64,000 bases of DNA from Deltaproteobacteria bacterium. Lineage in GTDB: Bacteria; Desulfobacterota; Desulfomonilia; Desulfomonilales; Desulfomonilaceae. Position 1 is the stretch's first letter; each line of letters begins with the position of its first letter. The DNA is taken from positions 42,555 to 106,554 of the forward strand of contig VGSG01000007.1 in NCBI GenBank assembly GCA_016875095.1. The letters run 5' to 3'. Below, piece by piece: positions 9,670 to 61,880 of the stretch. Position numbers and translations under genes: made by a program. Under the pieces are notes generated by a model. The model made no database searches. It saw only the letters and a list, made by a program, of their open reading frames with translations, and had not been told where the DNA came from.

Positions 9670-9686
9670 AGGGTTTTGATAACAAA

Positions 9687-15288: not shown

Positions 15289-15374
15289 AGCGCCTCTCAA
15301 GTTGTTGCGAAATACCACGCGGCCCTTCGTACGAGGGACCCGCGATTCGCCGGTCCAAATCCCGGAGTGGGCCG

Positions 15375-15980: not shown

Positions 15981-16062
15981 CGTGCCAAACAACCTCTTCT
16001 ACGGCGAGTCATCTCAATCTAATGCACTCATTCCGGCTCGTCAACAGAACACCCTCGTCGAT

Positions 16063-17673
16063 TGTAACCCTTCAGTTACTCGTGGGGGATCATGGGAGGG
16101 GTTTGTCCGATTTTTTTCTCGCGAAAGGTGCTTGATTGCGCTATGGCTCTTGTCGGCTGATTCCGACAAGGTTTTGAGTTCCATGGGCGTCAACAGCTGT
16201 CCCTTGTGCTTGGAGAAACAGCGTCAGATCGACGATTTGAAGGATAAGAACCGGCGTCTGAAGGAGGCTTTGCGCCGAAGGGAGCGCAGAGAGGAAGAGG
16301 GCTTTTTGGGCTCGTCAACCCCTTCGTCCAAGAAACCGATCAAAGGAAATACGGAAAAGAAAGACATCAAGGCCAAGGGGGCGCGTCCTGGACACAAGGG
16401 CCATGACCGGAAGGGCCATAGCGAAATCTCACCGGATCGGATCTTGGACGTTGAAGAACAATGGGAGCGCTGTCCTGAATGCGGTGGTGCGCTGGAAAAT
16501 AAGGGCTGGGAAGAAAGAAGCGTGATCGATTCCCCGCCCCAGAGGGCCGAACCGGTTCTGTATCGATTGGGTAAGCGGTATTGCCCCCGGTGCAGACGAG
16601 GCTTCACTGCCCAGGCGCCGGGTGTGCTTCCGAAAAGCCTCTACGGTAACCAACTCATAGCCAATGTTATCGTGATGCACTATCTGTACGGTCTTTTGCT
16701 GGGGCGGGTTTCCGAATATTCCGGGGTCGGAGCGGGCAGTCTCATGACCATATTTCATCGATGCGCCGGCCTGTTTGAAGGGGCGCCACACCAGCTCATT
16801 GAGGAATATCGACAAGCGCCGGTAAAACATGCGGACGAAACCGGTTGGCGCACTGATGGGAAGAACGGATATGTGTGGCTCTTTGCTACCACGCGATTGA
16901 GCATCTTTCAATTTGGCAAGAATCGGTCGGCGAAGATTCCGCAGGCGGTGTTTGGGGCCGAGCCGTTGCCTGGGGTGCTTGTGGTAGATCGATACAATGG
17001 TTACAACAAGATTCGCTGCGAGATCCAGTATTGTTATGCCCGTCTTTTGCGGGATGTCCAAGATTTGGAAAAGGAATTCCCTGATAGCGCCGAAGTCTCC
17101 ACATTCGTTGCGGTGGTGGCGCCGCTTATGGCGCTGGCCATGGGATTGCGCAGCCAGCCTCTGAGCGATGACCAATTTTTCTCTGAGGCTTCCAGGGTCC
17201 GTTCAGAACTGAAGGCCGCTATGGACCGGCCGGCCAGGCATCAGGGAATTCGTCGGGTTCAGGACATCTTCCGGGAAAACCAGGGGAGGCTGTATCATTG
17301 GGCCGAGATAAGGCTGTGCCGGCAGACAACAACCTGGCCGAGCGAGACCTCAGACCCTCTGTCATTGCCCGGAAGGTCAGCTTTGGATCGGTAACTGATG
17401 CCGGAGCCAAGGTGCGCAGCACCCTGACCACCATCGTGACTACGCTGAAAAAACAGGGCCTGGATGCCGCACAGAGAATCAAAGAAACCCTCGACACCCT
17501 GGCAACAGACCCTCATCAAGATGCTTACAGTCTCTTATTCTCAAGAGCTGGGCCGAAATGAATACTTATTCCCGGTCAGATTCACCCGTCAACCTCCACC
17601 GCAACCCTGAAACCCCAGGACTCCGTGCCCCCCTGTCCTGACTCCACAGACCGCGGATAACTGAAGGGTTACA
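16063..17673 (+). mobile_element. IS66-family insertion sequence (~1.61 kb, ISBst12-like layout)
   Basis: Perfect 16-bp terminal inverted repeats, TGTAACCCTTCAGTTA (16063-16078) and its complement (17658-17673), extend with mismatches to about 23 bp. A single transposase gene fills the element and no tnpA/tnpB accessory genes are seen, as in the ISBst12 subgroup. IS66 elements begin with GTAA, which would place the exact ends one base inward. No 8-bp target duplication is visible, which suggests an old insertion or a rearrangement. Confidence 0.85.
16183..17561 (+). pseudogene. IS66-family transposase, frameshifted near its C-terminus
   Basis: The N-terminus has a coiled region and KKPIKGNTEKKDIKAKGARP. 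A zinc-finger-like Cys set follows (RCPECGG, then RYCPRCRRGF), then the DDE core with VKHADETGWRTDGKNGYVWL and GVLVVDRYNGYNKI. At about 17300-17315 the frame breaks: the conserved end (DKAVPADNNLAERDLRP, then LLFSRAGPK) continues in another frame to 17561. A one-base deletion explains it, so the copy is probably inactive unless frameshifting or an assembly error is involved. Confidence 0.85.
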
Positions 17674-45952: not shown

Positions 45953-47044
45953 TCACGCGCCTGCTTGGCCCCAGTCCTTTTCTATAGCGTAATCAATGAC
46001 ACGGTGGATGACTTCGTCGGTCATGGGAGGGACCGGGTAGTCGGCCAGCGCGCGGTCGGTGTTGGAACGGTCGAATATGGGGTTGTTGGAAAAGTAGAAA
46101 AGAATCGTCTGCATTTGGCGCCAGACCATTCGCTCGATTCTGTTTCGAGGCTGGGTAAACGGCGCGCCCTCGCCCGCGAAGTTGATCCCGCCGATGTCGA
46201 ACTTCTTGCAAATGAGATCCAGGGTCGCCTGGTGCGTGGGCGGGTCGGGATGGGTGAGGTGGAACACCTTGTTATGGTTTTTCGCGTTCTCGATGATGCG
46301 CACCGCGGCTTTTGACACGTAATCGACCGGGATTATGTTGGCCGCGCCGACGGGGCTCGCAGGGACATTAATGTTGAGGTTGTGCCTGTCATAGTCGGTA
46401 GCTTCCCTGGAAAGCCTGTCCAGCAGGTGAACCGCCTGAAAAAGATAGTACCACCCGGTGAAGGACGTGCACCGCCCTGTCTCGGAATGCCCCACGATTA
46501 TGCTGGGTCGTAACACCGTGGCCCGGTCCTTCCAGATTTGTTCCGCTTCCCACTTGCTCTCTTCGTACACGTTGACGAAATCGCCCCGAGGGTTGTGCTT
46601 CTCATAGACCCTCTCATTGGGCACGAATCCGCAGACGTACGCGGTGCTGACCAAGTGGACGTTCATGGGATGGAGCTCTACCAGCCCTTTGAGCACCTTG
46701 GCGCTGCCCACATTGGTCTTGAGGGGCTCGCCGTTCTCGTCCATATAGTGCCGAGTGGACGCGGCGCTGTGGAGGAGATTGTCCACCTCATCCAGTCCCT
46801 CGTATTCGCGGCGCCATTCATCCCACTTCTGGTCGGCCTCAAGGAGCTCGCCCTTGAACCAGTGGAGACTGTCCGCGCTCCTCGGCAGTCCAAGGCTGCT
46901 CAGGAACCTGATGGTGTCCAGCTTCCGAGATTCGCTGCGATAGAGCGCCCAGACGACGTGTCCTCGTTCCAGGAGGTCGGCGAGAAGATACTCTCCCAGA
47001 AATCCAGTGCCTCCCGTAAGCAAAACCTTCATTGGTCTATTCAT
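45953..47044 (-). CDS. thioester-reductase-like NAD(P)-dependent enzyme (extended SDR)
   Basis: 363 residues. Cofactor motif KVLLTGGTGFLGEYLLADLL at the start, HSAASTRHYM, Tyr/Lys active site in FVNVYEESKWEAEQIWKDR and LRPSIIVGHSETGRCTSFTG. Enzymes of this class reduce carrier- or CoA-bound acyl thioesters to aldehyde or alcohol, or act as related dehydrogenases. It is divergent from the megasynthase across a 230-nt promoter region, so it may release its product. Start 47044 is chosen by GAGAGGTGA upstream. Its 3' tip was duplicated to 42712-42800. Confidence 0.8.
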   Translation of the reverse strand: MNRPMKVLLTGGTGFLGEYLLADLLERGHVVWALYRSESRKLDTIRFLSSLGLPRSADSLHWFKGELLEADQKWDEWRREYEGLDEVDNLLHSAASTRHYMDENGEPLKTNVGSAKVLKGLVELHPMNVHLVSTAYVCGFVPNERVYEKHNPRGDFVNVYEESKWEAEQIWKDRATVLRPSIIVGHSETGRCTSFTGWYYLFQAVHLLDRLSREATDYDRHNLNINVPASPVGAANIIPVDYVSKAAVRIIENAKNHNKVFHLTHPDPPTHQATLDLICKKFDIGGINFAGEGAPFTQPRNRIERMVWRQMQTILFYFSNNPIFDRSNTDRALADYPVPPMTDEVIHRVIDYAIEKDWGQAGA

Positions 47045-47209
47045 AATGATTTCAATCACCTCTCGAAAATCGCCACTCGTGAGACCGTGCCCGCGTAGAG
47101 ACCCGCGCACTGCGGCCGGCCGAGTCGGATAACCTATAACAATACCACCTTCTCCCTCTCGGGTAAATCCGTCTTGTTCGCTCACATGAGGAGGCGCTGT
47201 CGTTTTAGC

Positions 47210-47237
47210 TTAACCCTTTCGCTCAATGTGCTATATT
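47210..47237 (+). promoter_or_regulatory. sigma-70-like promoter of the megasynthase gene
   Basis: TTAACC (47210-47215) and TATATT (47232-47237), 16 nt apart. Transcription would begin near 47244, leaving the ATG at 47251 almost leaderless; the ATG at 47275 with GAGG upstream fits better. Confidence 0.5.
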
Positions 47238-47274
47238 AAAAGTTTGATTTATGACGTGGAGTTCGAGGTTTCAA

Positions 47275-50200
47275 ATGTTGCAGGAGCGTGAATTTCCCTT
47301 GATCGCCTTTGTCTGGCGCCACCAGGATATTGCTTCTTCGGTTGTCGAGGTGGCCCGACGCACCGCCGCGCGAGCGGTCTTTGACCTGACCCGAACGGAC
47401 CCGCCGGCTATGGCCGCTGCTCTCCTGAAAGCGGACGCATCGGACGAGACCGCGCACGTTAAGGTTTCACCCCGAACCTTGCTCGACGCCAAGCTGGAAG
47501 AACTTCTGTCGGAAACCGGCATCAACACGGTCTGGGTAGAACTCCATCCTGTTCTCTTGGACAAGGATCCGGGAGTGTGCCTTGACAGAATGGTGGAACT
47601 GGCCCCCCGTCTCCGCTGTATTCCCGTGGTGAGCGATCTTGGCCTGATCCGCCGCGTGATTCATGAATATCCCCAAGTACAGGACATCGCTCTGAAGGGC
47701 TCCGAGGCCGCGGGCTTCGTGAGCGGCGAGAACCTTTTCACCCTGTACGAAGCGGTGCGGGTGGAACTCCTCAACGCAGACCGCCGGCGCAACGTGGTGA
47801 CCTGGGGCGGCATCGCCACCCCCGAGGCTGCCGCCGCGTTTCTTGCCGCGGGCGCGGCCGGAGTGGTCTTTGAAAGCGTCCATTGGTTAACGGATTTGAT
47901 TTCGCTCGGAGATGAGGCGCGAGATCGCATCAGCAAGCTCCGACCGGAGCATATGGACTTGACCGGGCTCAACCTCCAGGTCCCTTGTCGGCTTTTTAAT
48001 AAGGGGAATTCGAGAGCAGTCAAGGAGCTGCGAGAGTTTGCCGGCTCCCTGTGCGGGGCCGAGATCCGAGACGAACAGCGGCGTTTCTTTGCCCACCGGA
48101 TTGAAGAGGCCGCGATCGACCCGTTGGAGAGTCATTTCTCGCGCGACGAGTTGCTCGCGTTGGGAGTGGAAGCCGCATTTGCCCAATCCTTTGTCCGTCG
48201 CTTCGGTTCGAGCACGGAACAGGCCATCGATCGCTTCATCAGGGAGATCGAAACAGCGTGCGGTCGAGCAGGCGAGAAGGAGAAGGCGTTCTCCGACAGC
48301 CCGGTGGCTAAGGAGATGGGGACGCGGTACCCGTTTATCCAGGGGGCCATGTCCTGGATCACCGATGTGCCCGAATTTGCCGCGAAGGTCGCTGACGCTG
48401 GAGCCCTGCCGACCCTGGCTCTCGGGCTCATGGATAGTCGTTTGCTTGAGGAAAAACTCGGTCGCGTGCGTGAAGTTATGGGGGAGCGACCCTATGCGGT
48501 CAACGTGATCACGCTCCAGGAAAACCCTTTCCGCGAGCAGCAACTTGCATGGATACGCGCGGAAGAACCTCGCTTCGCGGTTATCGCCGCGGGGGAGCCC
48601 TCCCATGCCCGTGAGCTTCTAGAAAGCGGCATCGAAGTCATCTATATCGCGCCCAATGAGGAGTTGCTCAAACTCGCGTTCGACGTCGGCGTCCGGTACG
48701 TGATCTGCGAGGGAAATGAGGCGGGCGGCCATGTCGGCGAACACTCGACCCTAACCCTCGCCCAGATGGTCGTTGACCTGAGGAATCGCGAGCCCGAACT
48801 ATGCCAAGGCCGCCGCGTGATACTGGCCGGGGGGATCTGCAATCGAGAGACTGCTTTCATGGCTGCGATGCTGGGCGCGGACGCGGTGCAGATGGGAACC
48901 TGCTACCTCACCACCCGTGAAATCGTGGAGACCGGAGCGCTCAGCGAGCTGTATCGACGCATGATACTGGAGGCCGGCCCGGGATCGTCAGTGCTTACCG
49001 GAGAGGGGACCGGCCTCAGGGTCCGTTCGTTGAGGACCCCGCGCATCGAGGCCGTCTGTAGCCTGGAGCGCGACTTCGCGGCCGGATCGGAGGATGAATC
49101 GTCATTCCGGCACAAGATTGAGCAGCTTACTGCGGGCAGCCTGCTCATCGCGGCCAGAGGGATCGAAGGTCCCGGTGGCCGGCCACTGGACGAGCAGTCT
49201 TGTATGGAAAAGGGCCAGTTCATGACAGGGGCTTCCGCCGGGGTCTTGAGCCGAATTCGCTCACTGGAGGAACTTCACCGGGATCTTGCGGACGCGCCTC
49301 TGCCCGCGGGCCTCCCCTTCCAAGGGCCGGTAAGAAAGGTGTTCGGCCCCCGTGAAATGCCTGAAGCGGGCCGCGGTCGGCCGGCCGCCGTGGGACTTGG
49401 TGTGAGGAAAACCGCGATCCATGTTCCGCAACAGGAACGCATTGCCATAACCGGGATGAGCATCGTCAATTCGCTGGGCGCCAGTCCCGAAGAAGTATGG
49501 GCAGCCAGTAAAGCCCTGCGCTGCGGTATCGTTCCCGTGCCTCTCGAAAAGTGGGACCATCAGCTCTACTTTGATCCCCGCCCCCGCACTCCTGAGAAGA
49601 CCTACTGCAAGGTGGGAGCGTTCCAGCGCATCGAGGTTTCTCGGAAAGACCTGGGCATACCGCCACAGGACTTCAGGACCATGACCGATTCGACCAAAGT
49701 AACCATGTGGCTTGCCAAACAGGCCGTGGAAGCTTCGGGCATTCTTGATTCGGACATACCCAAAGAGCGTATCGCGGTGCTGATTTCCCAGAACTCCGGC
49801 GAGGCCGCGGCGACACTCCAGGACGTAATTATTCGAGGCAGGACCAAAGAGCTTGTCTCTGCGATGAAGAGCGCGATCCCGCTGGGTCCTGATGCGGAGG
49901 AAGCGGTGGCCGCAGCCGTGAAATCCGGACGGATCGTCATCGACGACACCACCCTTCTGGGCAGGCTCAATTGCGCGGCGGCAGGATTCATCTGCAATAA
50001 GTACGGCTTCCAGGGACCCAGTTTTGCGGTTTCCGCCGCGTGCGCAACCGCGCTTGTCGCGCTCTACAGCGCATACCAGATGATCCGAAACGGCATAATT
50101 GACGCGGCCGTCATAGGAGGCGCGGAAGAGAGCCTCACCCCCATGCACTTCCTGGAGTTCTCGGCTTTGGGCGCGCTCGCGGGACTCTCAGGGGTGGACC

Positions 50201-53200
50201 GGGCAGCGCATGAGGTAAGCCGGCCGTTCGACGCGGACCGTGACGGTATGGTCCTGGGGGAAGGCGGCGGCATGATCGTCATCGAGCGTGAATCCGTGGC
50301 CCGAAGCAGAGGCGCGAGGATCCACGCGTACATCACCGCTATGGGCGCGAGCAACAATCATCTGGGCATGGTGGAGTCTTCCCGGATCACGCAGGAAATA
50401 GCGATCGCCGCATCGTTCGCGGACGCGCCGTACGGTCCGGAAGGGGTCGATCTGGTGGAATGCCACGCGACCAGCACGCGGCAGGGCGATGTGGAGGAAG
50501 TCCACGCGCTCAGGAAGTTCTACGGCCCCGGCCGGCCGGTCGCGCTGACTTCGTTCAAGTCGCAGATCGGTCATACCTTGGGGGCTTCGGGCGTCAACAG
50601 CCTGATCCGCGGTGTGATGGCGATGAAAGACAAGGCGCTTCCTCCAAGCATCAATTATCAGACCCCCGATCCGGACATGGAACTGGACGGGTCGGGAATC
50701 TCGGTGGCCACCGGGCTGACCGAGTGGAAAGCCCGCGACGGGAAACCAAGACGCTTCCAGGTGAACGCGTTCGGGTTTGGCGGATCCAACTACGTGCTCC
50801 AGGTGGAGGAGTCAACCGAGGATCAGGACACAGCGCTGGTTTCCATTCCTCAACCCGAGGCCGCGGCTCGGCAGGAAAGCCAGGAAGCGGACTTGCCGCG
50901 CGGTCTGCATTTGTACACTACTGAAATCGGCCACAAGACCTACCGCATGGGTGTGGTCGCTGATGACGAGCCGCTCGCTTTGGAGCTGGTGGAGAAGGCC
51001 GAAGCGATGGGAAACGGCGGCCCAGCGCCGGTCAAGCGTATTCGAGCCCTGGCGCGTCAGGGAATCCACATAGGACTTGCAGAGGGCGCGCCGCCTCCGT
51101 TGGCGCTGGTCTTTCCCGGTCAAGGATCCCACTACGCGGGAATGGCTCACGAGCTGTACGAGATTTTCCCGGTCATCCGGGATTGGATGGATCGCATCGC
51201 CGAGGTGGCGGATTTCGACATCTTGCGGCTGTTGTTCCACGATCGGGAAGAAGACCTGCAAAAGACCAGATGGCAACAGCCGGCCCTCTTCACCATGGAA
51301 TACGCCATGGCCCGGTATCTCATTTCCTTGGGCATTCGGCCGGCGGCGATGGCGGGTCACAGTCTGGGCGAGTTAACTGCGCTCTGTATAGCAGATGTCT
51401 ACTCGTACCAAGACGGTTTCCGTATCGTGAACAAGCGGGCCCTCTGTATGGATAAGGCCTGCGAAATGAACGCGGACCCCGGCATCATGATGGCGGTGGA
51501 TGCGCCGCTGGATTATCTCCAGGAGAGGCTCCGGGATCTGGATAAGGTCTATGTCACCAATATCAACTCGCCGAACCAGGTGGTCCTGGGAGGCGACACG
51601 GAAGCGGTCACCGCCCTGGGCGAAGAACTCAAGGCCGAGGGATATCGCCGGACCAAATTGCGGGTCAGCATGGCTTTCCATTCGCCGATTATGGCCTGTA
51701 TCCACGACGAACTGGAAGAATTCATAGCAGGCATCCCATTTCATGCTCCAAAGATCCCCGTGATCTCCAACACCACCATGCTACCCTTCCCGGACGATTC
51801 AATAGAGATCAAGAAGATCGTGATGGCTCATCTGGAATCTCCGGTCCATTGGATGCAGAACGCGCGGACGCTCTGGGACGACTATGGTGTCAGGCTCTTT
51901 GTGGAAGTGGGGCCGCGGGACATTCTGAGCAACCTCATTTCAGACGGCAACCCGGATGCGGACTGCCTCCAGACCTGTCTTCCGTCCGCGGAGAGCCTTA
52001 TCTATCGGACCTCGTTGGCCCAGCTTTACGCGAGGGGCGCACTCAAGCCCAAGACTCAACCTAAGTTCGTCGCGTTTGCGGGAAAAGAGAGTCGGCCGGA
52101 CACGAGCTCGGCCCCGCCTGCGGCTCAGCGCACCGCGGCCACGGCGCGGTCCACGGGCGCGCCCGGGGCCATAGAGTGGGTCGTGCAGCGTGAGATCAAC
52201 TCCTTTCTGATGGAAACATTCGGCCGTTTCCTGAAACCGAGCATCTTGGCCGCGATTCGCCGTGAGGTGGACCCGAATTTTAGCGAAGAAAAGCTCGAGA
52301 CGGTCCTCAGAACGGTGCTGCCGGGTATGACGACTCCGTCTACGCCTGCGATCCCGACTATGCCTTTGGCCTCCGTCGCCGCGGCTCCCATCGCCGCTGC
52401 GCCGGCGGTTCCGACCGCGGCCCTTCCGCAAGCGCCTTCCGAGGGAGAAGACGTCACCGAGGCTGTGATTCGCATCATCATGGAAGCAACCGGGTACGAG
52501 CGTGACGAAATCGAACCCGATATGGATCTGCGAGAAGATCTGTCCATTCGATCAAGTCGTCTGCCCGTAATCATGGACGCGGTGGAAAATCACTTCAGCA
52601 TTAAGATCGAACTTGAGCAATTTATGGATGTGCGGACTATCAGAGAGGTCGCGGACACCATCTCCGCGGTTCTGGCCAGAAAACAGGGAATTGCGGCTCG
52701 CGCCGCCGCGGAAACTCCCGTCGATCTCTCAGGCGCCCGCGCAGAGGGAGCTGTTTCCGCAACAGAGCCCACTCAACGGACCACTACTTCGCCGGAGCAG
52801 GAACCAATCAAGCGACTCGTCTTCCGTGAAGTTCCGCTGGAGGAGGGGAATTCCCAACCGGTCGAGTTGGACACCCTGGAGTCCGTGGTGGTGTACTCCG
52901 CCGAGGGTGGGACAGGATTGCGGCGGCGGGTAGCCGAGGTGTTTCGCAGGGACTATGGAGTGAACCTGGTGCTCTCCGCATTCGGCGAAGCGGGCGAGGC
53001 CCGCGATGAGTGTTGCGATCTCGCTACCGAAGCGGGCGCAGCCGAAGCGGAGAACCGCTTGCGGGAAGTGGAATCGCTCGCGGGAACGGTCTTCATCATT
53101 GACGACGTCTTCGAAAGCAAGAAGCATGAACCAGAAGATCTTTCACGCATCCTGACCGGCTTCTTCCGGCTGCTGAAGATCTTCCTGGAATCACCGGCGA

Positions 53201-55323
53201 GAAAGTTCTGTTTGCTCATCCATCGGACCGAGCACCCAGAAGGAATCGGGCGGGTGCTGGCGGAAGGTGTGCTGGGAATGTTCCTGAGTCTGGCTCATGA
53301 GTTCTCTTCGGTCCAGTTCCGCACGATGCGAGTGGACGAAAAGACCGACCTGCGGTCTGCAATTCGCGGCGCATTGGACAGAAGCCGCAAGGTGGTGGAG
53401 TTCATTTATCACGGCGGGGAGGCTTTCACCACAGAGGGTCGTGTCGAACCGCTCGTCATGGGCCGCGCCCAATCTGTTGAGCTTGGCCCGGAGAGTGTTG
53501 TGGTGATTTCGGGCGGAGGGTACGGAGTGACGTCGTACCTGGCTCGCAGCCTTGTTCCGTTTGGCTGCCGCATGGTCTTTCTTGGACGCTCCACCCTCGA
53601 CCCGGATATTGATTTCCGAGAATTGGTGAACTCGACAGAACTCGATCCGGACGCGGTAACGCGGATGGTCAAGCAGGCAAAGCCGGGGATCTCGCCCGAG
53701 GGTTTGGATCGCGAGATGGCTAATGTGGCCAAAACCGTGGAGATCATCCGGTTTGTGGAAGAGCTGCGCGGACTCGGCGCTGACGCCTCATACTATACCT
53801 GTGACGTGGCGGATCCCCAAAGAGTCGCCCAGGTAATGGGCGCCATTGTGAAAAGGCACGGCCGGATTGACGGAATCATTCATGGAGCGGGCTTGCTCAG
53901 GGACAACTTCCTCAGACAGATGTCCACGGAAGACTTTGCCCGTGTGACCGCCGTGAAGTTCCTCGGGGCGTGGAATCTCTTCCAGGCCGCACGGCCCGCG
54001 GGGCTGCGTTTCTTCGTCTGTCTTTCTTCCGGCGCAGCGATTCAGGGCAACCCCGGGCAAGTAAACTACTCGGCCGGTAACCGCATCATGTCTGCTTTGG
54101 TCGATCATCTGCGCTCGCAACATGACGAGGTCTTCTGGCGCGCCCTGATGCTCTCGCCCATAGAAGGCGCGGGCATGGCGGAGAACGAAGAAGTCCGGGC
54201 TTTCATGAAAAGGGTAAACGCGGCCTACATACATGCGGAAGAGCTTGCGTGCCTCTTCACGAGGGAACTAACCCTGGGGCCGAAAGATGACGCGTGGGTA
54301 ATGTTCATGCGAAGTCTGCCGGATCTGCCCACGGTGCGCTTGCAGATGTCGCCGCCCACACCTAAGCCGGATGCGATGGACTTGGCCTGCGTTACCTTTG
54401 AGCGGAACGACTTCCCGCTCATCGACGCGGTGACCGGTCTGGACCTGCGCACAGGCGAGCTACGGGCAACCAGGACTTTCTCTCAGGAGCGCGATCCTTG
54501 GATCGCAGATCATAAGCCGTTCAAGTTCCTTAAGTATCCCCTGGTGTCGGCTATTATGGCCTTAGAGACTTTCATGGAATGCTCTAAGATTCTGTACCCC
54601 TCGTTGCATGTGCTTGGAATCAGAGATGCTCGCTTCCTGGACATCATAACGTGTCCTCCTGGAGTGGAGCGCGAATCGGAGATCACGTGTCGACGAGAAT
54701 CTTTGGCGAATGGGCGGATTATCTGCGGAGTCTCGCTATCTTCGCGAGAGATTTCACCCTCAGGCCGGCTCATGGACCGAGTGAATGCGAATTACCGAGC
54801 CCAAGTGGCCCTCGGCGCCCGCCCGGTTGGGCCCCCTGAACGGATGCCGGGATTCCCTGTCACGGACGGCGATCTTGACAGCCGACCTATGCTGCACGAC
54901 GAGGTGCTGAGATGGTACAGCGACCGCACGGACATGCAGGGACGATACCGCCTCATGGAAGAGATACACGGCTCCGGCCCCGACGCGGTGCGCGGCCGGA
55001 TAACCTACCGCGTTACGGAGGATTTTGCGCCGCCGCGCATGACTCGTTACCAGTTCTCGCCGTATCTCCTGGAAGCGCTCATGCAGGTGGCGAACTTCTA
55101 CGTGATCATGAGGGACCAGAACGAACAGCGCTCCATGATTCCTTTTAGGATAGGACGCATCGACATATTCCGACAATGCTTGGAAGACGAAGTGATCACC
55201 GTCGAAGCTCGCATCAGCGGCCGGACCGATGAGGGCATCACATGGGCGGCCCGTGGTGTGGATCGGGACGGAAAGACCGTCATGACGGCGCATGACATGG
55301 TGATGCGCTGGTTCTCGGCATGA
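47275..55323 (+). CDS. PUFA-synthase/PKS-like megasynthase: NPD-like, NPD, KS, AT, ACP, pseudo-KR, KR, DH
   Basis: 2682 residues. Order: a degenerate NPD-like barrel (~1-340, NVVTWGGIATPEAAAAFLAA); a full flavin NPD/enoyl-reductase-like domain (~348-690, RYPFIQGAMSW and EGNEAGGHVGEH); ketosynthase from 723 with Cys923 (SAACATAL), His1064 (ECHATSTRQGD) and His1100 (SQIGHTLGASG); acyltransferase from 1276 with Ser1363 (GHSLGE) and AFHSP; one carrier domain (1728-1802) with Ser1760 in DLSIRSSRLP; a structural KR half (~1830-2060); ketoreductase from ~2076 with Ser2252/Tyr2265 (NYSAGN); and a dehydratase-like hotdog with His2413 (WIADHKPF). All steps of a reducing iterative cycle are present, but no thioesterase. 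ATG 47275 is chosen for its GAGG; 47251 is an alternative. Confidence 0.9.
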   Translation: MLQEREFPLIAFVWRHQDIASSVVEVARRTAARAVFDLTRTDPPAMAAALLKADASDETAHVKVSPRTLLDAKLEELLSETGINTVWVELHPVLLDKDPGVCLDRMVELAPRLRCIPVVSDLGLIRRVIHEYPQVQDIALKGSEAAGFVSGENLFTLYEAVRVELLNADRRRNVVTWGGIATPEAAAAFLAAGAAGVVFESVHWLTDLISLGDEARDRISKLRPEHMDLTGLNLQVPCRLFNKGNSRAVKELREFAGSLCGAEIRDEQRRFFAHRIEEAAIDPLESHFSRDELLALGVEAAFAQSFVRRFGSSTEQAIDRFIREIETACGRAGEKEKAFSDSPVAKEMGTRYPFIQGAMSWITDVPEFAAKVADAGALPTLALGLMDSRLLEEKLGRVREVMGERPYAVNVITLQENPFREQQLAWIRAEEPRFAVIAAGEPSHARELLESGIEVIYIAPNEELLKLAFDVGVRYVICEGNEAGGHVGEHSTLTLAQMVVDLRNREPELCQGRRVILAGGICNRETAFMAAMLGADAVQMGTCYLTTREIVETGALSELYRRMILEAGPGSSVLTGEGTGLRVRSLRTPRIEAVCSLERDFAAGSEDESSFRHKIEQLTAGSLLIAARGIEGPGGRPLDEQSCMEKGQFMTGASAGVLSRIRSLEELHRDLADAPLPAGLPFQGPVRKVFGPREMPEAGRGRPAAVGLGVRKTAIHVPQQERIAITGMSIVNSLGASPEEVWAASKALRCGIVPVPLEKWDHQLYFDPRPRTPEKTYCKVGAFQRIEVSRKDLGIPPQDFRTMTDSTKVTMWLAKQAVEASGILDSDIPKERIAVLISQNSGEAAATLQDVIIRGRTKELVSAMKSAIPLGPDAEEAVAAAVKSGRIVIDDTTLLGRLNCAAAGFICNKYGFQGPSFAVSAACATALVALYSAYQMIRNGIIDAAVIGGAEESLTPMHFLEFSALGALAGLSGVDRAAHEVSRPFDADRDGMVLGEGGGMIVIERESVARSRGARIHAYITAMGASNNHLGMVESSRITQEIAIAASFADAPYGPEGVDLVECHATSTRQGDVEEVHALRKFYGPGRPVALTSFKSQIGHTLGASGVNSLIRGVMAMKDKALPPSINYQTPDPDMELDGSGISVATGLTEWKARDGKPRRFQVNAFGFGGSNYVLQVEESTEDQDTALVSIPQPEAAARQESQEADLPRGLHLYTTEIGHKTYRMGVVADDEPLALELVEKAEAMGNGGPAPVKRIRALARQGIHIGLAEGAPPPLALVFPGQGSHYAGMAHELYEIFPVIRDWMDRIAEVADFDILRLLFHDREEDLQKTRWQQPALFTMEYAMARYLISLGIRPAAMAGHSLGELTALCIADVYSYQDGFRIVNKRALCMDKACEMNADPGIMMAVDAPLDYLQERLRDLDKVYVTNINSPNQVVLGGDTEAVTALGEELKAEGYRRTKLRVSMAFHSPIMACIHDELEEFIAGIPFHAPKIPVISNTTMLPFPDDSIEIKKIVMAHLESPVHWMQNARTLWDDYGVRLFVEVGPRDILSNLISDGNPDADCLQTCLPSAESLIYRTSLAQLYARGALKPKTQPKFVAFAGKESRPDTSSAPPAAQRTAATARSTGAPGAIEWVVQREINSFLMETFGRFLKPSILAAIRREVDPNFSEEKLETVLRTVLPGMTTPSTPAIPTMPLASVAAAPIAAAPAVPTAALPQAPSEGEDVTEAVIRIIMEATGYERDEIEPDMDLREDLSIRSSRLPVIMDAVENHFSIKIELEQFMDVRTIREVADTISAVLARKQGIAARAAAETPVDLSGARAEGAVSATEPTQRTTTSPEQEPIKRLVFREVPLEEGNSQPVELDTLESVVVYSAEGGTGLRRRVAEVFRRDYGVNLVLSAFGEAGEARDECCDLATEAGAAEAENRLREVESLAGTVFIIDDVFESKKHEPEDLSRILTGFFRLLKIFLESPARKFCLLIHRTEHPEGIGRVLAEGVLGMFLSLAHEFSSVQFRTMRVDEKTDLRSAIRGALDRSRKVVEFIYHGGEAFTTEGRVEPLVMGRAQSVELGPESVVVISGGGYGVTSYLARSLVPFGCRMVFLGRSTLDPDIDFRELVNSTELDPDAVTRMVKQAKPGISPEGLDREMANVAKTVEIIRFVEELRGLGADASYYTCDVADPQRVAQVMGAIVKRHGRIDGIIHGAGLLRDNFLRQMSTEDFARVTAVKFLGAWNLFQAARPAGLRFFVCLSSGAAIQGNPGQVNYSAGNRIMSALVDHLRSQHDEVFWRALMLSPIEGAGMAENEEVRAFMKRVNAAYIHAEELACLFTRELTLGPKDDAWVMFMRSLPDLPTVRLQMSPPTPKPDAMDLACVTFERNDFPLIDAVTGLDLRTGELRATRTFSQERDPWIADHKPFKFLKYPLVSAIMALETFMECSKILYPSLHVLGIRDARFLDIITCPPGVERESEITCRRESLANGRIICGVSLSSREISPSGRLMDRVNANYRAQVALGARPVGPPERMPGFPVTDGDLDSRPMLHDEVLRWYSDRTDMQGRYRLMEEIHGSGPDAVRGRITYRVTEDFAPPRMTRYQFSPYLLEALMQVANFYVIMRDQNEQRSMIPFRIGRIDIFRQCLEDEVITVEARISGRTDEGITWAARGVDRDGKTVMTAHDMVMRWFSA

Positions 55324-55558
55324 TGAGGCCCATTGGAGCCACTGTAATTGCTGATAAACGATCGCCGTGAACAGGGCGGTTTTGAGGCCGGGGAATTGAT
55401 TTATGAGGCCCCATTATCCGGCGCAACTGAGCGCGTCTCTGCGCCGTCTGCGGCAAATCGGCCATTATCCCGCTCTGAGATGAGTTGTAGAATGGCGAGC
55501 TTCCGTGTATCTTGAAAAGAAGTATGCGCGGGGACGCAGAGGCTTGGAGACTTCATCC

Positions 55559-56365
55559 ATGAACCATGCGCACTTCCTTCCAGCGGAGAGTGAGGGCCAG
55601 AGCCGTTCTGCGCACGCGCCGTCACACACGTGCGGTGAATCGATATTTTCAGAGCGGCAACCGGACTCCACAGTCACGCTGGTGCGCGATGAGGATGGGC
55701 AGGGCTTGGCGCTTTATTGTTCCGAGCGGGAGACACCCCGTGACGACGTACGGGGCAAGAGGTCCGAAATCCATCGTTTGCTCGTTGAGCGCCTTTTTCG
55801 GGCGCTGGGCGAGCTTTCTGCCTCCGAGGAACTTTTCGAAATCCTGGGCGCCGATTCGGCCCATGATATTGAGGTAACCTCCGGGCCTCTGGGAAAGCCG
55901 CGCCTGCTGGTGGACGGGACAGACTCGCTTTCGGTATCCTTTACTCACGGACGGGGGAGAATCTGGGCTGCGCTGGGACTTCCCCGTTACTCCGTGGGCA
56001 TCGACGTGGCGGAGAAGCGTGAGTTCCACAGCACGTACCCTTTCGCGCGAGCTTTTTATGATGAAGAGCTGGGCCGGATACGAGAACGCATGGGCGGAAC
56101 GAGCTCTCAAGCGGCCGCTCTGATCTGGAGCGCCAAAGAAGCGGCGGTTAAGGCCCTTGGTTGCGGCTTTCATCTCCTTGATCCCCTGGACCTTCGGGTG
56201 ACATTGACATCACGGCGCGCAAATCATTTCTTATTGTCGGTGCAATTAATACCTTCCTCTCAGGACCGCCGTGTACGCGCCCCCAGGGGAGGGCTGCCCG
56301 CGCGTGCCACGCAAGAAGACGCATACTGGCTTTCAGTGTGCGCTGTGTCGTTGCCGGCGCTATGA
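55559..56365 (+). CDS. Sfp-type 4'-phosphopantetheinyl transferase
   Basis: 268 residues. It attaches phosphopantetheine from CoA to the carrier serine. The Sfp/AcpS-type Mg2+-binding motif is YSVGIDVAEKREF, and the second motif is LIWSAKEAAVKALGCGFHL. An upstream HGRGRIWAALGL corresponds to the substrate loop. It lies 235 nt downstream of the megasynthase on the same strand, so activation of its ACP is the likely job. The start is uncertain: ATG 55559 has GGAG 9 nt upstream. The Arg/Pro-rich stretch near the C-terminus is unusual. Confidence 0.88.
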   Translation: MNHAHFLPAESEGQSRSAHAPSHTCGESIFSERQPDSTVTLVRDEDGQGLALYCSERETPRDDVRGKRSEIHRLLVERLFRALGELSASEELFEILGADSAHDIEVTSGPLGKPRLLVDGTDSLSVSFTHGRGRIWAALGLPRYSVGIDVAEKREFHSTYPFARAFYDEELGRIRERMGGTSSQAAALIWSAKEAAVKALGCGFHLLDPLDLRVTLTSRRANHFLLSVQLIPSSQDRRVRAPRGGLPARATQEDAYWLSVCAVSLPAL

Positions 56366-56422
56366 ATTGGGTCCTAAGCCTTCTCCTCGGGCGGCACATG
56401 GCCGCAAGGCGGGAGAGATGCT

Positions 56423-58006
56423 ATGAAAGTTCTCCTCATTAATACCAACACGAAGAAAGACCTGCTTGCAGCGCCTCCTCTGGGGCTGTGCTATGTGGCG
56501 GAGGCCAGTGAGAAAGACGGGCACGAAGTCCACGTGCTGGACCTCTGCTTTTCCAAGCGCCTGGAGCGAGACCTCAAACGGACAATTGCAGGGTTTTCTC
56601 CTGATGTGATCGGCCTATCGGTCCGGAACATAGACAACGTGAATATGTTGCACCAAGTGCTCTATATTCCCGAAGCAATAGAGATGGCGAACCATATACG
56701 GAGAATCACCGACGCGCCGCTCGTCGTTGGAGGGTCGGGGGCAAGTCTGGTCCCGGAGCAAATTCTGAGACATATGGCCGCGGACTATGTGGTGGTTTCC
56801 GACGGCGAGGAGAGCTTTCCTCGACTCTTGACGTCGCTCGGGAACGGCCGTTCTCCTGATGCCGTTCCCGGCGTGGGAATGATGCGAGACGGACTATTCC
56901 ACCTCACACCGCCCCAAATGGGGCGATTCTCGTGGGGTAACCCTGACTTGGGCCGCTGGCTCGACATGCGGGGCTACCAGAAGATAGGCGGCAGCTACAA
57001 TCTGCAAACCAAGCGAGGATGCGCCCAGAATTGCGTCTACTGCACGTACAATCAGGCCCTTGAAGGGAATCGACTCCGTCTCAGGTCCTCAAAGGATGTG
57101 GTGGATGAAGTAGAGGAGGCTGTTCTCAAGTATCGGCCCCATACTTTCGAGTTCGTCGATTCGGTCTTCAATGAACCCCTGGAACACTCTGTTCGCATCC
57201 TCGAGGAGATCATACGGCGACCCTGGAAAGCCCACTTCACCGCCATGGGCGTGAGTCCCAAGAGCCTTGACTCCGAGTATCTGGATCTCATGTGGCGAGC
57301 GGGATTCCGCTCTTTCATGATCACGCCCGAATCCGCCTCGCCCGCGATGCTCAAGAACTACCAAAAAGGGTTCACGCAGGACGATGTGATGCGAGCAGCG
57401 GAGGCAATCGGTCGGACCGAGTTTGCCGCATGGTGGTTCTTCATGATCGGGGGACCAGGTGAGACTAACAAAACCTTACAGGAATCGCTCGATTTTGCCC
57501 TCACACACCTTCAGAAGAAGGGACGCAGGGTGACCAATGTGGCCCATTTCTTTAGCGGCGTTCGGGTCTATCCACGGACGGTTCTATGGGACGTTGCCGT
57601 TCGCGAGGGTCTTTTCCCGGCCGACGCGGATCCTCTCCAGCCTCTCTGGTATCTTTCTCAAGCTTTGGATCTGGATTTGGCGGTGGAGCAGATGATCGAT
57701 GCGGCTCGCAAGGCGCCGGAAATCTTCCTGGGTTTTGATGAGCGAATCCTGGTCTTTTCAAGAGCAGCGGCTCTATTCTTCGAGTACTTCCGTTTTCGCA
57801 GGCCGTACTGGCGCTATTTCCGAGCGGCCAACCAATTTGGTCTTAAATCCGGTCTCAGGTTCATGTTCAAGCCTCACGATGTTGCCGACCTCTTGAGGCA
57901 GGCCCTTGTAAGACAGGGGTTACCGCAGAACCTCGCCCACGGGAAAGTCGTGGCCGCGTCACACGCGCGAGTCGAGTCTTCTCGCGTGACCGGCGGCATT
58001 CGGTAG
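56423..58006 (+). CDS. B12-binding-type radical SAM enzyme
   Basis: 527 residues. The N-terminal Rossmann-type cobalamin domain (MKVLLINTNTKKDLLAAPPL, VIGLSVRNIDN, LVVGGSGASLVPEQIL) lacks an obvious DxHxxG, as is usual in this class. The radical SAM core has the 4Fe-4S motif KRGCAQNCVYCTYNQA (CxxxCxxC), FEFVDSVFNEP, SFMITPESASPAMLKNYQKG and FFMIGGPGETNKTL. Relatives modify or methylate lipids, tetrapyrroles and natural products. It is 57 nt after the PPTase gene, so it probably tailors the product of the megasynthase (inference). The C-terminal third is specific and unrecognised. Confidence 0.87.
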   Translation: MKVLLINTNTKKDLLAAPPLGLCYVAEASEKDGHEVHVLDLCFSKRLERDLKRTIAGFSPDVIGLSVRNIDNVNMLHQVLYIPEAIEMANHIRRITDAPLVVGGSGASLVPEQILRHMAADYVVVSDGEESFPRLLTSLGNGRSPDAVPGVGMMRDGLFHLTPPQMGRFSWGNPDLGRWLDMRGYQKIGGSYNLQTKRGCAQNCVYCTYNQALEGNRLRLRSSKDVVDEVEEAVLKYRPHTFEFVDSVFNEPLEHSVRILEEIIRRPWKAHFTAMGVSPKSLDSEYLDLMWRAGFRSFMITPESASPAMLKNYQKGFTQDDVMRAAEAIGRTEFAAWWFFMIGGPGETNKTLQESLDFALTHLQKKGRRVTNVAHFFSGVRVYPRTVLWDVAVREGLFPADADPLQPLWYLSQALDLDLAVEQMIDAARKAPEIFLGFDERILVFSRAAALFFEYFRFRRPYWRYFRAANQFGLKSGLRFMFKPHDVADLLRQALVRQGLPQNLAHGKVVAASHARVESSRVTGGIR

Positions 58007-58122: not shown

Positions 58123-58169
58123 ACAACGCTGCCGTGAAATTTGAATTCGAGTTGCGTGGGAGGGAATAC

Positions 58170-58463
58170 ATGACGCTCACCAAAGCCGATATCGCCAAGA
58201 AAATCGCTGATGACTGCGGTTTTATGAAGGGTGAGGCGACCGAGATCGTTGAGAAGCTGCTCGATATAATTAAGCAGAGATTGATAGCGGGAGAAGATGT
58301 GATGATATCCGGCTTCGGCAAGTGGACGGTCAAGTCCAAGCACTCCCGCAGAGGTCGTAATCCGCAGACGGGTGAAGAACTGATCCTCGACGCCAGAAAG
58401 GTAGTTACCTGGAAGTACTCTCCCGTACTCAAGAAAGCGGTGAACAGCTCGCTGTCCAAGTAG
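58170..58463 (+). CDS. ihfA: HU/IHF-family DNA-bending protein (IHF alpha-like)
   Basis: 97 residues. It begins MTLTKADIAKKIADDCGFMK and carries the family DNA-arm core GEDVMISGFGKWTVKSKHSR with RRGRNPQTGEEL. The product bends DNA as a dimer and assists sigma-54 promoters and recombination. The GGGAGGG before ATG 58170 sets the start; the open frame upstream to 58134 is excluded. The alpha versus beta assignment is by eye. Confidence 0.9.
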   Translation: MTLTKADIAKKIADDCGFMKGEATEIVEKLLDIIKQRLIAGEDVMISGFGKWTVKSKHSRRGRNPQTGEELILDARKVVTWKYSPVLKKAVNSSLSK

Positions 58464-59246: not shown

Positions 59247-60698
59247 GTGAAAGCATTTGAAACGGAAAAATCACCCAAACGCCGCGCCGCGTTCGGATTG
59301 GGGAACTCGGATACTGCGCGGCCGCGCTATTTCCGGGACGAGCCCGGTGGGCGCCGTGAAGTGATAAAGATAGCCGGCCCACTGATTCTTGCCACCGGTT
59401 CGTTGACGCTCACGCTTTTCGTGGACCGCCTTTTCCTCGCGTGGCACAGCGAGGCTGCGGTTGCCGCGGCAAGCCCGGCCGGAATTACCTATTTCACCCT
59501 CTGTTCGCTCTTTATGGGGACTGCCCAGTACGTGAACTCGATTGTGGCCCAGTTCCACGGCGCCGGCGATCGGCCTGCGTGCGCGCGGGCCGTATGGCAA
59601 GGGGTGTTCTTTGCGGCTATGTCTGCGCCGTTCATTTTGGCGTGCATTCCGGTGGGCTGGTGGATCTTTACCTGGAGCGCGCATGGTGAGAAACTCATTG
59701 AGCTTGAACAGGACTATTACACCATGCTCATGCTGGGAGGGCTCTTCTTACCGATGAACGCGGCCCTCTCGTCCTTCTTTTCCGGCAGAGGAAAGACGTG
59801 GACCATTCTCTGGGGGAACGCGCTGGCAAACGGCGTGAACATGGTCCTGGCTTACGTGCTCATCTTCGGGAAGCTGGGATTTCCGGAGCTGGGCATCCGA
59901 GGCGCGGGGATCGCCACCGCCGTCAGCCAAGTATGCCCCGTCTTGTACTGGGGCTATCTTTTCCTTGCGCCTCGCCACCAAGAAGCGTACGAGACCCGTC
60001 GTCAGTTTCGGTGGGACCGGGGGTTGTTTCAGCTCATCATTCGGTACGGCCTTCCCGCTGGATTGCAGCTCTTCTTGGATGTAGCCGCTTTTGCCCTCTT
60101 CGTCCTATTGGTGGGAAGGCTGGGAGAGCGAGACCTCGCGGTGAGCAACATCGTGGTGAGCATAGAAATGCTCTCCTTTCTTCCTATGTGGGGCATGTCC
60201 ATCGCCACCGCCACCATGGTGGGTCAGTACGTCGGCGCAGACAAATTGCAGCTTGCCGAAAAGAGCGTTCGGTCGGCCCTGACCCTGGCGTTGGCGTACA
60301 TGGGTGTAATGGCGTTGTGCTTTCTCCTTTTCCCCGCGGTGTTCTTGGAACTCTTCAGATCCGGGGCGCATTCGGAGGAAGGCTTCCAAGAGATCGTGAC
60401 CAAAGGCGCGGTCATTCTGAGGCTCGTAGCAGTCTATAGCCTGTTCGATACTCTGTTCATCATCTATTCGGGAGCCCTCAAGGGCGCGGGGGACACACGG
60501 TTTGCGATGTGGGCCCAAGTGCTGCTCGCGTGGTTCGTCTTTGTCCCGCCTGTCTACGCGCTGATTCATTACTTCGATGCGAGCTTGACCACCGCCTGGA
60601 CGTGGAGCGTGGTCTACGTGATCCTTCTGGGGCTGGTCTTCCGTACCAGATATCGGACAGGGCTCTGGAAGCAGATTCGGATGCTCAATCACGCGTGA
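59247..60698 (+). CDS. MATE-family efflux transporter
   Basis: 483 residues with about 12 hydrophobic helices in two homologous halves: IAGPLILATGSLTLTLFVDR starts the first, and GLPAGLQLFLDVAAFALFVL the second. AVAAASPAG and a matching FLPMWGMSIATATMVGQYVG region are typical of the NorM/DinF class, which exports cationic or polar compounds with Na+ or H+. GTG start at 59247. It might export the product of the upstream megasynthase locus, though the IHF gene and its promoter lie between. Confidence 0.88.
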   Translation: MKAFETEKSPKRRAAFGLGNSDTARPRYFRDEPGGRREVIKIAGPLILATGSLTLTLFVDRLFLAWHSEAAVAAASPAGITYFTLCSLFMGTAQYVNSIVAQFHGAGDRPACARAVWQGVFFAAMSAPFILACIPVGWWIFTWSAHGEKLIELEQDYYTMLMLGGLFLPMNAALSSFFSGRGKTWTILWGNALANGVNMVLAYVLIFGKLGFPELGIRGAGIATAVSQVCPVLYWGYLFLAPRHQEAYETRRQFRWDRGLFQLIIRYGLPAGLQLFLDVAAFALFVLLVGRLGERDLAVSNIVVSIEMLSFLPMWGMSIATATMVGQYVGADKLQLAEKSVRSALTLALAYMGVMALCFLLFPAVFLELFRSGAHSEEGFQEIVTKGAVILRLVAVYSLFDTLFIIYSGALKGAGDTRFAMWAQVLLAWFVFVPPVYALIHYFDASLTTAWTWSVVYVILLGLVFRTRYRTGLWKQIRMLNHA

Positions 60699-60830: not shown

Positions 60831-61880
60831 TTACTCTATTTCAACCAAGCCTTGCGGGTGGGTTTCCGTGACTTCGCCGACTTCCGCCGCGATCTCCACT
60901 CCTTCTTCCTGGAGCGTGTCTCTCAGTTCTTGGGACCGAGCCGATGGAATTCCCAGTATGAGCCCTCCGGAAGTCTGCGGGTCAAACATCACATCGATCA
61001 TTTCCGGCGAAAGCGTTCTCTCGAAGGAAATCCACGTGGAAAAGAATTTTCGGTTTGAGTGGGCCCCGCCGGGGACCAGCCCTGTCGACGCCGCATCCAG
61101 CGCGCCCTCAAGCAGCGGAACCGCGGCCGAATTCAGCCTGAGCCGGCAATGGGACGCTCGGGCCATTTCCACAAGGTGACCCCCGAGGCCGAATCCGGTC
61201 ACATCCGTGCAACACCTTACCCCGAAACGAACGGCCACCTCTGAGGCTCGCCGGTTCAAGGCGCACATGGATCGAACCATCGCGTCGATTGCAAGCGGGC
61301 CGGCTAAAGACGCCTTGAGCGCTGTGGCGATCAGGCCCGTCCCCACCGCCTTGGTCAAGATGAGGCGGTCACCGGGTTGCAGGCTGGAGTTCCTCATAAC
61401 CTGGTCCGGATCAACCAGCCCGGCCACGGCCAGCCCATACTTGGGCTCCGCATCCTCCACGCTGTGCCCGCCCACCAGGGCCACGTTCGCCTCTGTGAGC
61501 GTTTCCAAGCCACCGGCGAGGATCTCACGGAGCGGCTCCAATCCCAGCTTGCTCACCGGGAAGCAGACCACGTTCATCGCGGTCACAGGCCGGCCGCCCA
61601 TGGCGTAAACATCGCTCAGCGCGTTGGCCGCGGCAGCCCTGCCGAAAATCCGCGGATCGTCTACAATAGGTGTAAAGAAGTCTATGGTCTGAATGAGCGC
61701 GGCGCCATCGTCCAGGAGGTACACTCCGGCGTCTTCTGATCCACGAATCCCGGCAAGGACTCGCGGATTGTCCGGAATCGCCAAGCCGCACAGCGCTTGA
61801 TCCAGGTCCCCCGGACCCACCTTTGCGGCTCAACCGGCCGTCTTGGAGAAGCTCGTGAGCCTTATCTTTTCGGGCGCCAT
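60831..61880 (-). CDS. selD: selenide, water dikinase with TGA-encoded selenocysteine
   Basis: 349 residues. It makes selenophosphate from selenide and ATP, the selenium donor for selenocysteine. Translation from ATG 61880 gives MAPEKIRLTSFSKTAG, then TGA (codon 17, 61832-61830), then AAKVGPGDLDQAL. Position 17 is the catalytic Cys/Sec position of the family, followed by the ATP-binding Lys. DAGVYLLDDGAALIQTIDFF, GGHSVEDAEPKYGLAVAG and FDPQTSGGLILG complete the enzyme. A SECIS-like hairpin follows the TGA. A naive caller would start downstream at 61820 and lose the active site. Confidence 0.95.
61804..61832 (-). promoter_or_regulatory. SECIS-like element of selD (TGA plus hairpin)
   Basis: After the TGA and exactly 11 nt, GGGTCC (61818-61813) pairs with GGACCT (61809-61804) around GGG. 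The spacing equals that in the fdhF gene of this window. The loop differs from the E. coli GGTCT type. Confidence 0.7.

What the first reader, a model, noticed from the sequence alone, without database searches (positions are those of the whole stretch)
45953..58006. PUFA-synthase-like secondary lipid locus in an anaerobe
Seen: a thioester-reductase-like gene, a single-chain NPD-KS-AT-ACP-KR-DH megasynthase, a Sfp-type PPTase and a B12-type radical SAM enzyme lie together. Known: the combination of reducing megasynthase, reductase and PPTase recalls heterocyst glycolipid and PUFA-type systems. Inferred: an iterative enzyme builds a long acyl chain, released as aldehyde or alcohol and then tailored by radical SAM chemistry. 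No thioesterase is visible. The product is not obvious and the four-gene set may be undescribed.
Basis: partly seen in the sequence, partly recalled or inferred. Interest (0 to 1): 0.78.

Follow-up and report, generated by a model that had tools for sequence, protein, structure and literature searches.

The report
Anaerobe lipid synthase with radical-SAM partner
Many bacteria related to Desulfomonile carry, often side by side, genes for a giant fatty-acid-synthase-like enzyme, its likely activator, a vitamin-B12-binding radical enzyme and a reductase, which together likely make a long-chain aldehyde or alcohol, predicted to be methyl-branched, for a lipid of unknown identity.

Summary
A reductase (45953-47044, minus), a 2,690-residue synthase (47251-55323), a PPTase (55505-56365) and a B12-binding radical SAM enzyme (56423-58006) lie together, with catalytic residues intact. 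In the host's family (Desulfomonilaceae by record titles) 12 of 18 held genomes have all four genes and 17 of 18 the synthase. In a 395-genome draw of the phylum, close relatives of the radical SAM enzyme were seen in 10 genomes, all among the 16 with the synthase; the reductase is narrower (6 of 395). So the set is a real unit in one family, built on a wider core of synthase and PPTase. The 'PUFA synthase' label fails: one ACP, no chain-length factor, no FabA-type dehydratase, and PfaA and PfaD models far below cut-off. The enoyl reductase is FabK-like and fused in, behind an extra predicted TIM barrel. Hgl and swf membership fail too. Best reading: an iterative, reducing lipid synthase whose chain is probably methylated by the radical SAM enzyme and released reductively; the chemistry is inferred. 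The product is unknown and nine searches of an open-licence paper library showed no described twin. A new variant of the secondary lipid synthases, not a new kind.

The parts
45953..47044 (-). thioester-reductase-like extended SDR (363 aa from the likely start; the listed ORF runs to 47185)
   Evidence: NAD_binding_4 95.1 bits; TIGR01746 84.4 bits, below its cut-off 213.35; Tyr and Lys of YxxxK in 121 of 121 aligned sequences
47251..55323 (+). type I synthase, 2,690 aa, ER-KS-AT-ACP-KR-DH, likely iterative
47251..48270 (+). N-terminal extra TIM-barrel domain (residues 1-340), function unknown
   Evidence: AF2 model: eight strands between residues 17 and 207, block pLDDT 71-94 for residues 11-210 with one dip to 58, low from there to about 310; no Pfam hit at E 1e-3
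48310..49284 (+). FabK/NPD-type enoyl reductase domain (residues 354-678)
   Evidence: NMO; FabK model 157.3 bits, cut-off 453.1; Foldseek of the N-terminal model to FabK 2z6i E 1.7e-14
49435..50658 (+). ketosynthase (residues 729-1136), Cys931 His1072 His1108
   Evidence: residues invariant in 109 of 109
51109..51948 (+). acyltransferase (residues 1287-1566), Ser1371, AFH motif (malonyl type, recalled)
   Evidence: invariant in 109 of 109
52462..52662 (+). single ACP (residues 1738-1804), motif RSSRLP with Arg before Ser1768
   Evidence: RSSRLP in 109 of 109
53500..54129 (+). ketoreductase (residues 2084-2293), Tyr2273
   Evidence: Tyr in 109 of 109
54448..55320 (+). C-terminal PKS-type dehydratase (about residues 2400-2690), His2421 and Glu2608
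   Evidence: PS-DH 48.7 bits over residues 2555-2688; His 109 of 109, Glu 108 of 109 with one gap
55505..56365 (+). phosphopantetheinyl transferase (ACPS superfamily; first internal Met at 55559)
   Evidence: ACPS 44.9 bits; motifs LGKP and VSFTH
56423..58006 (+). B12-binding radical SAM enzyme near TIGR04072
   Evidence: three Cys of CxxxCxxC in 121 of 121
58134..58463 (+). HU-type DNA-binding protein, syntenic, probably not part of the pathway
   Evidence: downstream in 5 of 6 other synthase-linked loci that cover the place
59247..60698 (+). MATE-family transporter, possible exporter
   Evidence: MatE 134.8 bits; downstream in the same 5 of 6 loci

Best explanation
Four neighbouring genes encode an ER-KS-AT-ACP-KR-DH synthase, a PPTase-family protein, a B12-binding radical SAM enzyme and a thioester-reductase-like enzyme, and together they likely build, by an iterative cycle, one long, largely reduced acyl chain that is probably C-methylated by the radical SAM enzyme and would be released by the reductase as an aldehyde or alcohol. 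Shown by sequence: gene order, domains, conserved catalytic residues, conserved co-occurrence. Inferred: the PPTase converts the single ACP to its holo form; the malonyl-type AT feeds two-carbon units; KR, DH and the FabK-like ER reduce each cycle, so the chain is mainly saturated; with no thioesterase domain found, the divergent reductase ends synthesis; the radical SAM enzyme acts on the ACP-bound or released chain, methylation being the commonest outcome in its class (recalled; the nearest of only two solved relatives is a tryptophan C2-methyltransferase). The alcohol or aldehyde would enter an ether lipid or glycolipid, perhaps exported by the MATE pump.
For: Domains; catalytic residues of KS, AT, ACP, KR, DH kept in 108 full-length public sequences plus the window protein (12 of the 120 listed were shorter and left out); reductase glycine-rich motif and YxxxK near-invariant. 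All four genes in 12 of 18 family genomes by intersecting; all four on one stretch in five (G000, G003, G005, G007, G017). Synthase with adjacent PPTase match also in 7 other-family loci (L089, L091, L092, L094, L095, L098, L099). Radical SAM close orthologs (46% identity or more) seen in 10 of 395 phylum genomes, all 10 within the 16 that carry the synthase at E 1e-200 (Fisher 3.5e-16, not corrected for kinship). Adjacent to the synthase in another family (G347). The cluster-type radical SAM copies form one clade, support 1.0. Neighbours of more distant TIGR04072-like genes include a methyltransferase (L130), a type III PKS (L131), a lipid A-type acyltransferase (L132) and a FabA-type dehydratase (L133) (ten ORFs of four loci scanned, two further loci not scanned).
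Against: No product or activity is known. The reductase scores 84.4 of the 213.35-bit TIGR01746 cut-off and its structure model was poor (pLDDT 61.8), so thioester reduction is not proven. The reductase was found in 6 of 395 phylum genomes, five of the family plus G286, and two family genomes with the synthase, both about 82% complete, gave no match (G001, G009). Outside the family the radical SAM gene was next to the synthase in 1 of 5 genomes that have it (in G047 the contig is too short to tell), and 6 of 16 synthase genomes lack a close ortholog. Unlinked orthologs have non-lipid neighbours: ribosomal protein S2 and an MFS transporter in L114, PPDK and FMN-oxidoreductase genes in L053. The PPTase gave no match in 4 of 18 family genomes at E 1e-10. 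The outcome of the radical SAM reaction (methylation, cyclisation, desaturation) cannot be told from sequence.
Confidence: 0.45

Rival explanations
1. The true unit is synthase plus PPTase; reductase and radical SAM genes are add-ons that give different end products in different lineages, or act in parallel pathways.
For: Seven non-family loci have synthase and PPTase but no reductase match and no close radical SAM gene next to them; reductase in 6 of 395 genomes against 16 for the synthase.
Against: Among the matches listed for 395 genomes no close radical SAM ortholog lies in a genome without the synthase (the list is capped), and three families (f1, f8, f91) share the pairing.
Confidence: 0.25
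2. A polyunsaturated (PUFA-like) or polyene chain: the ER is used in only some cycles.
For: KS-AT-ACP-KR-DH order as in PfaA; PfaA model matches with 443.7 bits; a second PUFA-like synthase is present elsewhere in the genome.
Against: Single ACP, no CLF, no FabA-type dehydratase; ER in the same chain; PfaA cut-off 1010.1 and PfaD cut-off 449.25 not approached.
Confidence: 0.15
3. The radical SAM enzyme builds rings or C-C bonds rather than adding methyl groups, in a ladderane- or cyclised-lipid-like way.
For: Best NCBIfam match is TIGR04072, rSAM_ladder_B12, 315.5 bits; the anammox B12-radical SAM protein Kuste2803 was proposed as a cyclisation candidate (passages); whether Kuste2803 is a TIGR04072 member was not checked.
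Against: Score is below the 360-bit cut-off; Desulfotalea psychrophila, with a syntenic FASII cluster, showed no ladderanes (abstract); no ring-forming step was tested.
Confidence: 0.12
4. The reductase is an epimerase-type SDR that modifies a head group, and release is by acyl transfer or hydrolysis elsewhere.
For: It also matches Epimerase (43.5 bits), its curated thioester-reductase score is low, and two other lineages carry an Epimerase-type SDR right after the PPTase (L089, L095).
Against: NAD_binding_4 (95.1 bits) and the thioester-reductase models outscore Epimerase in the window protein.
Confidence: 0.15

Closest known systems
Secondary lipid (Pfa-like) synthases, Shulse and Allen Types A-T (PMC3098273; abstract, sections 6, 7, 8 and passages seen)
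   Same: KS-AT-ACP-KR type synthase genes with a PPTase gene close by; the window PPTase carries motifs P1a and P1b', as in Types M-T
   Different: ER fused at the N terminus behind another TIM barrel, single ACP, no CLF, no second synthase protein; the text I saw gives no thioester reductase (0 occurrences) and I saw no radical SAM partner there; Types S and T are only named in the sections I read, so a match to them is not excluded
swf clusters of sponge symbionts (PMC3908369; parts 1-3 of 5 read)
   Same: Single-module type I synthase, thioester reductase and B12-binding radical SAM enzyme together; product unknown
   Different: swfA order is KS-AT-DH-ER-KR-ACP and swfB fuses a sulphotransferase to the reductase; here neither holds, and a PPTase gene is present
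Heterocyst glycolipid (hgl) genes, HglB ACP-thioester reductase (PMC8064123; passages seen)
   Same: Synthase genes plus a thioester reductase near each other
   Different: Reductase stands alone and without an ACP; all synthase domains sit on one chain
TIGR04072 lipid/ladder B12 radical SAM family; ladderane candidate clusters (Rattray 2009, PMC2649909; abstract, section 9 and passages seen)
   Same: TIGR04072 is the best-scoring NCBIfam model for the radical SAM gene
   Different: 315.5 bits against a cut-off of 360; partner here is a type I synthase rather than FASII genes
NF045894 PKS_plus_SDR, type I polyketide synthase (NCBIfam)
   Same: Best NCBIfam match of the whole synthase, 538.7 bits
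   Different: Cut-off 1740 not reached; its biology was not looked up

Membership tests
PUFA (Pfa) synthase | Tandem ACPs (4-6 in the PfaA archetype) | tested here: not met
   One PP-binding match; PMC3098273 says single-ACP clusters were not excluded from its survey
PUFA (Pfa) synthase | KS-CLF pair and two DH/isomerase domains (PfaC) | tested here: not met
   One KS and one PS-DH, no FabA-like domain at E 1e-3
PUFA (Pfa) synthase | Curated PfaA / PfaD model scores | tested here: not met
   PfaA 443.7 of 1010.1; PfaD 42.6 of 449.25
Secondary lipid synthases in the wide sense | KS phylogeny joining validated members | not tested
   No characterised Pfa, Hgl or Ars sequences were at hand for a tree
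Secondary lipid synthases in the wide sense | Associated PPTase with P1a motif x(G/D)xP | tested here: met
   LGKP at residue 129; P1b' VSFTH at 144; no P0, no P1b in the window protein. A loose motif: the same pattern matches twice more in the protein. P1b' was found in 3 of 8 relatives, P0 and P1b in 0 of 8
Heterocyst glycolipid (hgl) | HglB-type ACP-reductase fusion | tested here: not met
   No ACP in the reductase
swf | KS-AT-DH-ER-KR-ACP order; reductase-sulphotransferase fusion | tested here: not met
   Order ER-KS-AT-ACP-KR-DH; no sulphotransferase match
swf | B12-binding radical SAM partner | tested here: met
TIGR04072 | Score over the 360-bit curated cut-off | tested here: not met
   315.5 bits; second copy L053 310.0, L104 296.3, L058 313.7
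Ladderane pathway | Ladderane lipids and the FASII clusters of anammox bacteria | not testable with these tools
   No lipid data; FASII genes were not searched
Thioester reductase | TIGR01746 curated cut-off 213.35 bits | tested here: not met
   84.4 bits; NAD_binding_4 does pass its Pfam cut-off, 95.1 against 20.1

The most novel reading that the evidence does not exclude
A widespread anaerobe-type lipid machine: a one-protein fatty chain synthase paired with its own B12 radical SAM enzyme that installs methyl branches or carbocycles at unactivated carbons, yielding a membrane or envelope lipid class not yet seen, and accounting for part of the 'hglE-KS' clusters reported in Desulfobacterota.
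Probability: 0.25. Interest if true: 0.75.

Novelty: new variant of a known kind. Interest (0 to 1): 0.5.

Why it matters
If true, a group of anaerobes makes a long-chain lipid by a route that needs no oxygen and no thioesterase, with a radical enzyme dedicated to tailoring the chain. It would give a gene marker for a so far unassigned lipid of anoxic settings. 'hglE-KS' clusters in Desulfobacterota have been read in print as a nitrogen-fixation signature (PMC11520301, passages); if those clusters belong to this family, which was not tested, that reading would need revision. That cultured strains of both species exist is recalled.

Tried and rejected
Rejected: chance co-location (conserved). 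Rejected: canonical PUFA synthase, hgl and swf membership (see Membership tests). Not used: the reductase structure model, pLDDT 61.8; a PDB sequence search with the PPTase, which found nothing at E 0.01; the promoter scan (4 sites against 4.3 expected) and terminator scan (17 against 13.6). Paper search for D. tiedjei lipids listed only unrelated titles; for B12 radical SAM with polyketide, methylation and ACP one HemN-like anthraquinone paper. In nine library searches I saw no paper on this gene set; the library holds only open-licence papers, and I read only what is named in Closest known systems and the Full report section.

Limits: the phylum sample is 395 genomes drawn evenly, at E 1e-200 (synthase), 1e-40 (reductase) and 1e-50 (radical SAM). 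Two family radical SAM hits group with the second-copy type rather than the cluster type (G002 support 0.96, G001 support 0.47).
Full report
Observation. The four genes stand at the stated places. Pfam gives NAD_binding_4 (95.1 bits) for the minus-strand reductase; NMO, ketoacyl-synt, Acyl_transf_1, PP-binding, KR and PS-DH, in this order, for the 2,690-residue protein; ACPS for the PPTase; B12-binding and Radical_SAM for the last gene. The reductase ORF is probably over-extended by 47 residues. Distances: 206 bases between the reductase's likely start and the synthase ORF, 181 between synthase and PPTase, 57 between PPTase and radical SAM gene.

Anatomy of the synthase. In an alignment of the 108 full-length sequences among the 120 listed public relatives, plus the window protein, KS Cys931, His1072, His1108, AT Ser1371 and the AFH motif, ACP Ser1768, KR Tyr2273 and DH His2421 are invariant (109 of 109), and DH Glu2608 is kept in 108 with one gap. 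That Asp is usual at this last site, that Asp usually precedes the ACP serine (here always Arg), and that AFH marks malonyl, is recalled. The best NCBIfam match of the whole protein is NF045894 (538.7 of 1740 bits), then PfaA (443.7 of 1010.1). The enoyl reductase domain is nearer FabK (157.3 of 453.1 bits) than PfaD (42.6 of 449.25), both below cut-off, and the best Foldseek matches of the N-terminal model are FabK structures (TM-score to the target about 0.7, rmsd about 7). The model (mean pLDDT 72.0) shows a second TIM barrel before it, eight strands between residues 17 and 207; its role is unknown.

Host and conservation. Titles of the 11 nearest records name Desulfomonile, Desulfomonilaceae, Syntrophaceae, Deltaproteobacteria and one 'Acidobacteria' bin, so the window most likely comes from a Desulfomonilaceae genome (4.7 Mb, 202 contigs). 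In the 18 held genomes of the family: synthase orthologs in 17, G015 having only a 31% paralog; radical SAM in 17, of the cluster-type clade in 15 (tree); reductase in 15 (in G012 only fragments); PPTase in 14 at E 1e-10. Intersecting the lists, 12 of 18 have all four. All four lie together in G000, G003, G005, G007 and G017; in several others the hits fall on two or more contigs. In G008 the reductase is on another contig although the synthase contig runs on for 10 kb. In G006 reductase, synthase and radical SAM lie together with no PPTase match between. In G004 one locus has reductase, PPTase and radical SAM without the synthase, another has synthase and radical SAM with a reductase remnant. 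In L039 the reductase sits beside the PPTase instead of beside the synthase start, and no radical SAM match lies in the 20 kb. HU and MATE genes follow the radical SAM gene in 5 of 6 other synthase-linked loci that cover the place (L051, L059, L060, L062, L063; not L058).

Outside the family. A 395-genome draw of the phylum has the synthase in 16 genomes at E 1e-200, the reductase in 6 at E 1e-40, five of the family plus G286, and close radical SAM orthologs in 10, all 10 among the 16. Six synthase genomes lack a close ortholog: G081, G286, G310, G329, G364, G394. Fisher's exact test gives 3.5e-16, overstated because relatives are not independent. Of the 11 non-family synthase genomes searched separately, five have such an ortholog (G307, G226, G347, G381, and a fragment in G047), one of them, G347, next to the synthase. 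In seven non-family loci the PPTase follows the synthase; in L086 (G286) and L088 (one of two synthase copies in G381) no PPTase match was seen beside it. An Epimerase-type SDR follows the PPTase in L089 and L095. A KS tree places G394, G329 and one G226 copy, from three families, together with support 1.0, which suggests transfer between lineages. Beyond the phylum, 941 protein clusters match at E 1e-60 (7,983 scored, best 120 listed), and the few names given include Thermodesulfovibrionales and Lentisphaerae.

Radical SAM gene. Its best curated model is TIGR04072, 'lipid biosynthesis', at 315.5 bits under a cut-off of 360; 38 of 198 phylum genomes exceed the cut-off, so that family is common. 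Of two solved relatives the nearer is a tryptophan C2-methyltransferase (the name TsrM is recalled). The synthase-associated clade, second copies included, separates from the more distant sequences with support 0.94. Neighbours of more distant relatives: a methyltransferase (L130), a type III PKS (L131), a lipid A-type acyltransferase and a second B12 radical SAM gene (L132), a FabA-type dehydratase, a B12 radical SAM gene and a polysaccharide deacetylase (L133); three of the ten ORFs scanned had no match and L134 and L135 were not scanned. Against this, unlinked close orthologs sit by genes that are not lipid-like (L114, L053). A lipid or polyketide substrate is thus suggested, not shown.

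Known systems. Shulse and Allen describe 20 types of Pfa-like clusters (abstract, sections 6, 7, 8 and passages read). The window PPTase carries their P1a and P1b' motifs, as in Types M-T. Fused pfaDA proteins are reported elsewhere (PMC13291983, passages), so an ER-first fusion is not new by itself. The swf cluster is the nearest functional parallel (PMC3908369, parts 1-3 of 5). hglE-KS clusters are reported in Desulfobacterota (PMC11520301, passages); whether they are this synthase was not tested. I saw no paper on this set in nine searches.

Verdict. The set is real as a conserved unit; the chemistry is inferred. I rate it a new variant of the secondary lipid synthases, moderately interesting, with a bold reading (radical-built branched or cyclic lipid) that the data allow but do not favour strongly.

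Noticed in passing
L054 (G000:C1:152001-169686), 5599-16215 plus strand: A second, 3,538-aa synthase in the same genome: NMO, several KS-type stretches, AT, two ACP stretches, KR, DH and a built-in PPTase, behind a TetR regulator and four ABC transporter genes; about 30% identical to the window synthase over the aligned part, and seen in 12 of 18 family genomes at E 1e-100.
   Followed up: partly
41033-42718 and 42857-45805: Two neighbouring caspase-domain (Peptidase_C14) proteins, the second with PEGA-type repeats.
   Followed up: no
G000:C13:5340-6833 (L053): A second copy of the radical SAM gene, 50% identical, between a PPDK-domain gene and an FMN oxidoreductase gene, with no synthase match in the 15 kb looked at.
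   Followed up: partly
L060 and L061 (G004): Two partial copies of the cluster in one genome: one without synthase, one with a reductase remnant and no PPTase match.
   Followed up: partly
L118 (G226:C243) 4881-6350, L099 (G329) 6946-8304, L097 (G307) 8416-9918: More distant B12-binding radical SAM genes (about 26% identical to the window's) lie within about 1.3 to 8 kb of other copies of the synthase.
   Followed up: partly
60831-61820, minus strand: Looks like selenophosphate synthase SelD (recognised from recall, no family search); relatives lie near the reductase in L048, L050 and L058.
   Followed up: no
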